Source: Marmoricola sp. Leaf446
GTDB lineage: Bacteria > Actinomycetota > Actinomycetes > Propionibacteriales > Nocardioidaceae
Reading direction: 5' to 3'
Length of the DNA: 64,000 nucleotides
Assembly (NCBI RefSeq): GCF_001424755.1
Contig: NZ_LMRF01000006.1
Location: 1 to 64,000, forward strand
The notes beneath the pieces were generated by a model that was given only the letters and a program-made list of their open reading frames with translations, made no database searches and was not told the origin of the DNA. The position numbers were made by a program, and so were the translations under genes. This document shows, in pieces, positions 18,821 through 19,120 of this stretch (position 1 is its first letter; every line of letters starts with the position of its first letter).

Positions 18821-18964
18821 TACGACGTCGGGTGGCCGAGTGCCACACCAGCGTTCTCAGGGCGCCGCAACGAGGACGCAGGTGTGGCACTCGCCCACCG
18901 TCGACCTGCGAATGTGGCCGGCGGGACGCCCGAGGTGCGCAGCCGTCACGGGCGCGACATTCGC
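18821..18964. repeat. tandem hairpin-forming repeat, copy 1
   Basis: First copy of a 144-bp unit repeated 156 bp further on. It contains a long inverted repeat: 18831-18849 pairs with 18881-18899 (19 bp, one mismatch) and, past a single A/A mismatch, 18851-18858 pairs with 18872-18879 (8 bp, one G-U). A second inverted repeat GCGAATGT/ACATTCGC (18908-18915 with 18957-18964) follows. No gene-like feature is seen; frames open through it encode Arg/His-rich peptides without family resemblance. Confidence 0.9.
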
Positions 18965-18976
18965 GGACGGCGGACG

Positions 18977-19120
18977 TACGACGTCAGGTGGCCGAGTGCC
19001 ACACCAGCGTTCTCAGGGCACCGCAACGACGACACAGGTGTGGCACTCGCCCACCGTCGACCTGCGAATGTGGCCGGCGGGACACCCGAGGTGCGCAACC
19101 GCCACAGGCGCGACATTCGC
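18977..19120. repeat. tandem hairpin-forming repeat, copy 2
   Basis: Second copy, with the same outer arms (GGTGGCCGAGTGCCACACC and its near-complement) and the same GCGAATGT/ACATTCGC pair. The inner 8-bp stem has two mismatches here and the rest has scattered substitutions, so this copy is slightly decayed. Twelve bases separate the copies. Together they occupy most of the 423-base gap between argC and the ABM gene. The remainder (18771-18820, 19121-19176) shows nothing I recognise. Confidence 0.9.

What the first reader, a model, noticed from the sequence alone, without database searches (positions are those of the whole stretch)
18821..19120. Duplicated 144-bp element folding into very long hairpins between argC and an ABM gene
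Two copies at 156-bp period each carry a 19-bp stem (one mismatch), an inner 8-bp stem that is intact in copy 1 and decayed in copy 2, and a second GCGAATGT/ACATTCGC pair. The high identity with compensating structure suggests a repetitive mobile or structural element (REP/MITE-like) or a non-coding RNA rather than a protein gene. It also sits upstream of the arg operon promoter.
Basis: seen in the sequence. Interest (0 to 1): 0.7.

Follow-up and report, generated by a model that had tools for sequence, protein, structure and literature searches.

The report
Solo ends of nuclease-gene hairpin elements
The duplicated hairpins between argC and its neighbour look like scattered solo copies of the hairpin ends that bracket a family of nuclease-like genes in this bacterial genus, a REP-like repeat system that seems to go with a nuclease-like gene instead of the usual transposase.

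Summary
Two 156-bp tandem units (143/156 identical) each hold a 55-nt hairpin (H1) and a 57-nt hairpin (H2). They are not a single-locus oddity.

H1 relatives, mostly exactly 55 nt, are scattered through the genome and occur in 9 of 24 genus genomes at a loose cut-off (6 at E<1e-3); H2 relatives in 20 of 24 (12 at E<1e-6). Both also occur as pairs about 1 kb apart. H1 pairs (4 species) bracket one clade, H2 pairs (8 species) another clade, of one protein family with weak AbiEi (winged-helix) and Vsr/DUF559-like nuclease matches.

More generally, 33 of 46 such genes found by protein search have matching hairpin-type flanks, against 6 of 166 control genes; 30 of 46 exceed every control. Flank sequence tracks protein sequence at unrelated sites (3 of 2000 permutations in the strictest test). 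RAYT transposases, the usual partner of REP repeats, were found in 0 of 24 genomes. Relatives lack the element at the argC site, and similar elements at two others.

Best reading: a REP/REPIN-like set of non-autonomous palindromes whose cognate gene is nuclease-like, not a transposase. Association is supported; nuclease-driven spreading is inferred.

The parts
18808..18963 (+). tandem unit 1 (H1 + H2)
   Evidence: 156-nt direct repeat, 92% identical to unit 2 (143/156)
18964..19119 (+). tandem unit 2 (H1 + H2)
18838..18892 (+). H1 hairpin, copy 1: 55-nt element, ~20-nt arms, 15-nt centre; stem extends to 18831-18899
   Evidence: R1 match 71.1 bits
18994..19048 (+). H1 hairpin, copy 2; stem extends to 18987-19055
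   Evidence: R1 match 67.9 bits
18908..18964 (+). H2 hairpin, copy 1: 57-nt element with GCGAATGT/ACATTCGC ends
19064..19120 (+). H2 hairpin, copy 2
17719..18753 (-). argC, flanking gene; 77 bp separate its start from the first stem
   Evidence: Pfam semialdehyde dehydrogenase domains; sequence
19177..19497 (-). ABM-domain gene; its 3' end faces the element
   Evidence: PF03992, E 1.5e-21
10939..10980 (.). solo hairpin of another type, resembling the hairpins that bracket the homologous gene at own-genome C1:1230278 (locus L136)
   Evidence: hairpin scan compared by eye with L136/L145 hairpins; lies between two convergent predicted ORFs

Best explanation
The element is a composite, tandemly duplicated pair of solo (non-autonomous) REP-like palindromes. 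H1 is the terminal hairpin of one clade, and H2 of another clade, of a chromosomal gene family whose proteins appear to join an AbiEi-like DNA-binding region to a Vsr/DUF559/MTES_1575-like nuclease region. Many of these genes sit as a cassette between two copies of their own hairpin; copies without the gene are dispersed in intergenic space, in this genome mostly between convergent genes. SHOWN: dispersed copies, gene bracketing, hairpin-protein co-divergence, presence/absence between relatives, no RAYT found. WEAKLY SUPPORTED: the domain names. INFERRED: the protein recognises the paired inverted arms (AbiEi proteins bind paired 23-bp inverted repeats spaced 3 or 13 bp; here ~20-nt arms are spaced 15), cuts or nicks at or near them, and repair or replication from another copy spreads the hairpin, with or without the gene. 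In the window, H1 has a resident cognate cassette (C2:221411-222538), whereas H2 looks orphaned (three strong copies, no ~1-kb pair among the listed matches). The 156-bp duplication is probably ordinary unequal recombination. No benefit to argC is needed.
For: H1-type copies elsewhere in genome and genus: (9 of 24 genomes at E<=0.1). H1 pairs 1062-1073 bp apart bracket homologous genes beside different neighbours: G000 and G073 share one site; G072 and G077 have two others (neighbours named from sequence only). H2 pairs in 8 species enclose a second clade (tblastn 8 of 8), next to pstB-like genes; the gene's 3' end overlaps the downstream H2 by 15-39 nt in 7 of 7 loci measured. The clades are homologous (hhalign 96%, E 3.7e-9, 248 columns). 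Pfam, 10 proteins: AbiEi_4 above cut-off in 2; below cut-off DUF559 in 2, MTES_1575 in 3, AbiEi_1 in 3. Matched flanks: 33 of 46 protein-search loci at >=17 against 1 of 39 window genes and 5 of 127 genes of other stretches; 30 of 46 exceed the highest control, 22.5. With ORF-based flanks at >=18: 29 of 45, against 0 of 40 window genes and 0 of 45 neighbour genes. Co-divergence at different sites: Spearman 0.38, 0 of 2000 permutations (40 loci); without the H2-chosen loci and with a stricter site filter 0.21, 3 of 2000; 12 of 17 pairs with protein similarity >0.5 share a hairpin against 3 of 102 below 0.1. Y1_Tnp/RAYT in 0 of 24 genomes; control rings in 5 of 14. Relatives lacking the element: argC-ABM junction of G079 and G072; C1:757553 is a ~90-bp insertion at a stop codon relative to G073, and the H2 copy at C1:847206 is missing from G073. 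AbiEi geometry: PMC7319586 passages.
Against: No movement was observed; a relative without the element could have lost it. Domain evidence is thin: none of the four H1-clade proteins P0001-P0004 passes a Pfam cut-off, AbiEi_4 was not seen in them and the hhalign match begins at residue 39, so a winged helix in the H1 clade is assumed; DUF559 reaches 20.4 of 20.6 bits at best. 13 of 46 protein-search loci lack matched flanks, including L104, one of the closest homologues, and L105 (G077), although L105 has R1 matches on both sides. The 46 loci include orthologues, so they are not independent, and the permutation tests do not correct for ancestry. Own-genome H2 has no cassette found, so its source is inferred. 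No target-site duplication was identified. Both protein halves track the hairpin equally (0.36 and 0.38). H2 cassettes sit at one shared place in most species, which looks inherited, not mobile.
Confidence: 0.58

Rival explanations
1. The hairpins are bidirectional transcription terminators or 3' stabilising structures kept by selection at gene ends; the nuclease-like genes use them as insulators.
For: 10 of 12 own-genome H1-type loci lie between convergent predicted ORFs; another window hairpin does too; 7 of 8 H2 cassettes have convergent flanking ORFs.
Against: Hairpin type follows the protein clade. Fixed 55/57-nt length and arm sequence exceed what a terminator needs. One gene junction carries different hairpins in two close species, another has one in one species only. 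REP repeats, treated in print as mobile DNA, show the same preference for convergent and unidirectional gaps (PMC3733652 passages). The window copy lies between co-directional genes.
Confidence: 0.19
2. The hairpins are operators: the protein represses its own gene, as AbiEi does, and the solo copies form a regulon; the nuclease-like domain acts on other DNA.
For: AbiEi_4 domain in 2 of 10 proteins; AbiEi and Rv2827c autoregulate through paired 23-bp inverted repeats (PMC7319586 passages); arm-spacer-arm size is similar.
Against: Hairpins lie on both sides of the gene and, in the H2 clade, inside its 3' end. Solo copies lie mostly past gene ends, not at promoters. ORF reading shows one gene in the cassettes viewed and no second, toxin-like gene. 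Copies differ between close species.
Confidence: 0.14
3. An ordinary MITE whose arms are the terminal repeats of a classical transposase.
For: Short inverted-repeat element, dispersed, missing in relatives at some sites.
Against: Y1 transposase in 0 of 24 genomes (other transposase families were not searched). The open frame between paired hairpins is the nuclease-like gene. No target-site duplication was seen.
Confidence: 0.06
4. A structured non-coding RNA.
For: Strong folding; in 33 H1-type sites 13 of 20 pairs change on both sides, 53 cells against 27.4 shuffled.
Against: No Rfam match at gathering score. In the nine closest copies no covariation (454 of 500 shuffles at least as well paired). 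Two identical DNA half-sites would also give paired changes between subfamilies.
Confidence: 0.03

Closest known systems
REP/REPIN palindromes with RAYT (TnpA-REP, Y1 tyrosine transposase)
   Same: Short dispersed intergenic palindromes, preference for convergent and unidirectional gaps, an associated gene flanked by its own palindromes, tandem clusters (PMC3116915 and PMC3733652, passages seen); vertical inheritance of RAYTs is recalled.
   Different: Y1 transposase in 0 of 24 genomes. The bracketed gene is AbiEi/Vsr-like by weak matches. Hairpins are mostly 47-57 nt with conserved arms; a GTAG end tag was not sought systematically.
CGTC-tagged REPs (RAYT-less palindromes)
   Same: REP-like repeats without a dedicated transposase (PMC3733652 passages).
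   Different: Those have 8-9 bp stems and no transposase gene was found associated; here a bracketing gene is found. CGTC inside H1 arms is not shown to be homologous.
Type IV antitoxin AbiEi / Rv2827c
   Same: AbiEi_4 region in some members; paired inverted repeats of similar geometry.
   Different: Extra nuclease-like C-terminus, no toxin-like gene in the cassettes viewed, repeats on both sides and dispersed.
Vsr-like (EDxHD) homing endonucleases
   Same: Possibly Vsr-related nuclease domain on a small selfish-looking gene (EDxHD as a homing-endonuclease family: PMC6083498, start of abstract in search listing; its link to Vsr is recalled).
   Different: Sits in intergenic hairpin cassettes with dispersed solo ends, not in introns or inteins.

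Membership tests
REP/REPIN-RAYT | dispersed, mostly intergenic palindromes | tested here: met
REP/REPIN-RAYT | associated Y1 (HUH) tyrosine transposase gene | tested here: not met
   0 of 24 genomes at E<=0.001; control positive in 5 of 14
REP/REPIN-RAYT | associated gene bracketed by the palindromes | tested here: met
   met, but by a different gene family
REP/REPIN-RAYT | GTAG tetranucleotide at one end | not tested
   not sought systematically; H1 and H2 consensus do not begin with it
Classical MITE | target-site duplication | tested here: inconclusive
   one clean junction (C1:757553) shows no obvious duplication; most other junctions are too diverged
Type IV AbiE toxin-antitoxin | AbiEi winged-helix domain | tested here: inconclusive
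   AbiEi_4 above cut-off in 2 of 10 proteins (L206, L136), none of the H1 clade
Type IV AbiE toxin-antitoxin | adjacent DUF1814/AbiEii toxin gene | tested here: inconclusive
   ORF reading shows one gene between hairpins and housekeeping-like neighbours; no toxin profile was run
Vsr/DUF559 PD-(D/E)xK nucleases | profile match above curated cut-off | tested here: not met
   best DUF559 20.4 vs 20.6 bits; MTES_1575 21.9 vs 38.2; conserved D, E and H residues seen
Vsr/DUF559 PD-(D/E)xK nucleases | nuclease fold and activity | not testable with these tools
   structure prediction is limited by its rule to window proteins and loci of other tools; not called
Structured RNA (Rfam) | family match at gathering score | tested here: not met
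   5 sub-threshold matches only

The most novel reading that the evidence does not exclude
A transposase-free analogue of REPIN-RAYT: a family of 'hairpin-bracketed nuclease' genes in which an AbiEi-like DNA-binding region fused to a Vsr-like nuclease recognises its own paired-arm palindrome and spreads it by cut-and-repair (homing into repeats). Each gene clade would own a private palindrome type, and orphan palindromes would persist after gene loss, as H2 seems to here.
Probability: 0.39. Interest if true: 0.87.

Novelty: new variant of a known kind. Interest (0 to 1): 0.7.

Why it matters
REP-like palindromes are usually credited to RAYT transposases, and some classes have no known enzyme. 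Here palindromes in RAYT-less genomes are tied, by bracketing and co-divergence, to a multi-paralogue gene family with weak AbiEi and Vsr-like nuclease signatures, for which my searches found no described role. If the link is causal, it explains a class of bacterial repeats, gives a role to a multi-copy gene family, and offers many natural protein-palindrome pairs for testing how a nuclease could spread a short DNA repeat.

Tried and rejected
ncRNA: Rfam gave only sub-threshold hits; no covariation in the nine closest copies. The wider H1 set does show paired changes; I read this as half-site symmetry, because subfamilies change both arms together.

RAYT: rejected. Plasmid or phage origin: one H2-clade protein has no match in 72,556 plasmid records and one in 50,697 phage records, an unverified 8.6-kb metagenome clone whose flanks score 17, within the control range. 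Viral contigs gave no confirmed relative. PDB sequence search with the H2 clade: no match.

Exact H1 pattern: only the own genome among 341 family genomes; in named genomes two loci of Pseudonocardia acidicola and one of Hymenobacter jeongseonensis matched, not followed up.

I therefore lowered the main confidence from 0.62 to 0.58 and the novel case from 0.42 to 0.39; the missing AbiEi_4 match in the H1 clade also counted.

Literature: DUF559+palindromic 2 papers, DUF559+inverted repeat 0, DUF559+mobile 5, REPIN+RAYT+Actinobacteria 0, REP+Nocardioides 1, a five-term actinobacterial REP query 0; by title none describes this. MTES_1575: 4 papers, passages of one (PMC3710099) seen. Only open-licence PMC papers were searched.

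Full report
OBSERVATION. The region holds two direct copies, 18808-18963 and 18964-19119, 92% identical (143 of 156). Each has H1 (55 nt, 18838-18892 and 18994-19048) and H2 (57 nt, 18908-18964 and 19064-19120). Folding is far better than shuffles (z -5.15). The element lies between ABM and argC, both on the minus strand. Eight of the 13 differences between copies are G in copy 1 and A in copy 2.

COPIES. A 151-nt query found further copies in the own genome (51 matches at E<=10, many probably chance). Nine H1 copies are each exactly 55 nt, roughly GAGTGCCACACCAGCGTCGT, 15 variable bases, and the inverted arm. A covariance model of these nine found relatives in 9 of 24 genus genomes at E<=0.1, 6 at E<1e-3, with 43 matches in the own genome counting both strands; most, not all, are 55 nt. 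The exact outer arms occur in 1 of 341 family genomes. A third palindrome, GCAGTTTCACCGG..CCGGTGAAACTGC, has 22 sites in the own genome, 6 of them 3-4 nt from an H1-model match.

PAIRS BRACKET GENES. In one search H1 copies recur at 1062-1073 bp spacing in G000, G073, G072 and G077. Between them lies one gene of 316-339 aa. Neighbours are shared by G000 and G073 but differ in G072 and G077. In one search H2 copies recur 992-1071 bp apart in eight species; between them lies another gene, about 300 aa in seven; in the eighth (L205) my ORF caller chose another frame but tblastn found the homologue. Seven of the eight lie between a pit-like and a pstB-like gene; in L203 one more ORF intervenes (neighbours named from sequence only). 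In 7 of 7 measured H2 cassettes the gene's last codons run 15-39 nt into the downstream hairpin.

THE PROTEIN. The two clades are homologous (hhalign probability 96, E 3.7e-9, 248 columns). Of ten proteins scanned with Pfam, two exceed the AbiEi_4 cut-off (L206, H2 clade; L136, a distant paralogue); DUF559 (2), MTES_1575 (3) and AbiEi_1 (3) appear only below cut-off; P0001, P0002 and L134 have no relevant match. NCBIfam found nothing for four. MTES_1575 is described as a Vsr-family REase (PMC3710099 passages), and DUF559 as frequent in Vsr-like endonucleases (PMC12907096 passages). Conserved D, E and H residues lie in the C-terminal half. The nuclease assignment rests on weak matches and conserved residues; the winged helix of the H1 clade is assumed from homology.

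GENERALITY. A P0001 search gave 96 matches in 24 of 24 genus genomes. I examined 47 of these loci: the automatic best loci plus a selection. One, L122, was dropped because tblastn missed it (its flanks do match). Comparing left and right flanks around the protein hit, 33 of 46 score >=17. The same rule gives 1 of 39 window genes and 5 of 127 genes of other fetched stretches, after removing the P0001 gene itself; highest control 22.5. 30 of 46 exceed that. With ORF-based flanks, 36 of 53 score >=18: 29 of 45 protein-search loci and 7 of 8 loci chosen because of H2 pairs; controls 0 of 40 window genes (maximum 16.5, same flank length) and 0 of 45 neighbouring genes (shorter, 250-bp flanks); a 46th 'neighbour' scoring 46 was the L122 homologue. 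The between-locus null is contaminated by orthologous sites (95% point 18.5, 99% 172.5), so I rely on the gene controls. Some of the 46 are orthologues of each other, so they are not independent.

CO-DIVERGENCE. Clades have their own hairpins, for example GATAGTCCGAGACG-like arms in a large one. At non-orthologous sites hairpin similarity follows protein similarity: Spearman 0.38, 0 of 2000 permutations, 694 pairs of 40 loci with matched flanks. Leaving out the loci chosen by H2 and filtering sites harder gives 0.21, 3 of 2000, 505 pairs of 33 loci; 12 of 17 pairs with protein similarity above 0.5 share a hairpin, against 3 of 102 below 0.1. N- and C-terminal halves do equally well. Ancestry was not corrected for.

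PRESENCE AND ABSENCE. The argC-ABM junction in G079 and G072 has no hairpin and is far shorter; G073 has an unrelated gene there. Against G073, C1:757553 is a ~90-bp insertion starting at the stop codon of the upstream gene, holding a short palindrome and a 55-nt hairpin; the H2 copy at C1:847206 is missing; at C1:564969 the two species carry different hairpins in the same gap. The other five alignments are too diverged or too uneven for me to read the junction. Of 12 own-genome H1-type loci, 10 lie between convergent predicted ORFs; L089 and L101 are unclear, and the H2 locus outside the window is co-directional. The ORF caller is crude.

STRUCTURE TEST. In nine close copies pairing is no better than shuffled (454 of 500 at least as high). 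In 33 H1-type sites, which include related subfamilies, 53 cells change on both sides against 27.4 expected (0 of 500), and sliding the partner destroys it. H2 (37 sites) shows 9 such cells against 3.7 (1 of 500). So symmetry is kept as families diverge, as expected of paired protein half-sites or of a functional DNA hairpin; these cannot be separated here.

MECHANISM. RAYT was not found (0 of 24). AbiEi binds two 23-bp inverted repeats spaced 3 bp, and Rv2827c pairs spaced 13 bp (PMC7319586 passages); 20-15-20 arms fit this kind of site. I infer that the AbiEi-like region binds the arms and the nuclease region cuts near them, so that repair copies the palindrome or the whole cassette. This is unproven. 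Terminator and operator functions may coexist.

THE WINDOW COPY. H1 has a resident cassette at C2. H2 has three strong own-genome copies and no ~1-kb pair among the listed matches; three of nine own-genome matches were not listed. So H2 looks orphaned. The tandem doubling is most simply recombination. Nothing shows an effect on argC.

IDENTITY.

Noticed in passing
window 10939-10980: Another strong hairpin (ACTGCCTCCTCACACAC...) of the type that brackets the homologous gene at own-genome C1:1230278; it sits between two convergent predicted ORFs.
   Followed up: partly
window 50417-50486: A 70-nt hairpin (score 24.2) of yet another sequence; no cognate gene was looked for.
   Followed up: no
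own genome, 22 sites, e.g. L045-L059: A 30-nt palindrome GCAGTTTCACCGG..CCGGTGAAACTGC, 6 sites of which lie 3-4 nt from an H1-model match; similar palindromes lie outside several nuclease-like cassettes. It may be a second, shared component.
   Followed up: partly
L143 and L122 flanks: Homologues flanked on both sides by tandem short repeats (CCGGGCAGTTCTGC..., CGCTGACCTGGCGCAAA...) in place of single hairpins.
   Followed up: no
L215 (G090 C4:356735-357009): Three H2-type matches in a row at 109-bp spacing, another tandem array.
   Followed up: no
L042-L044: Exact H1-like outer arms in Pseudonocardia acidicola (two loci) and Hymenobacter jeongseonensis (one locus).
   Followed up: no
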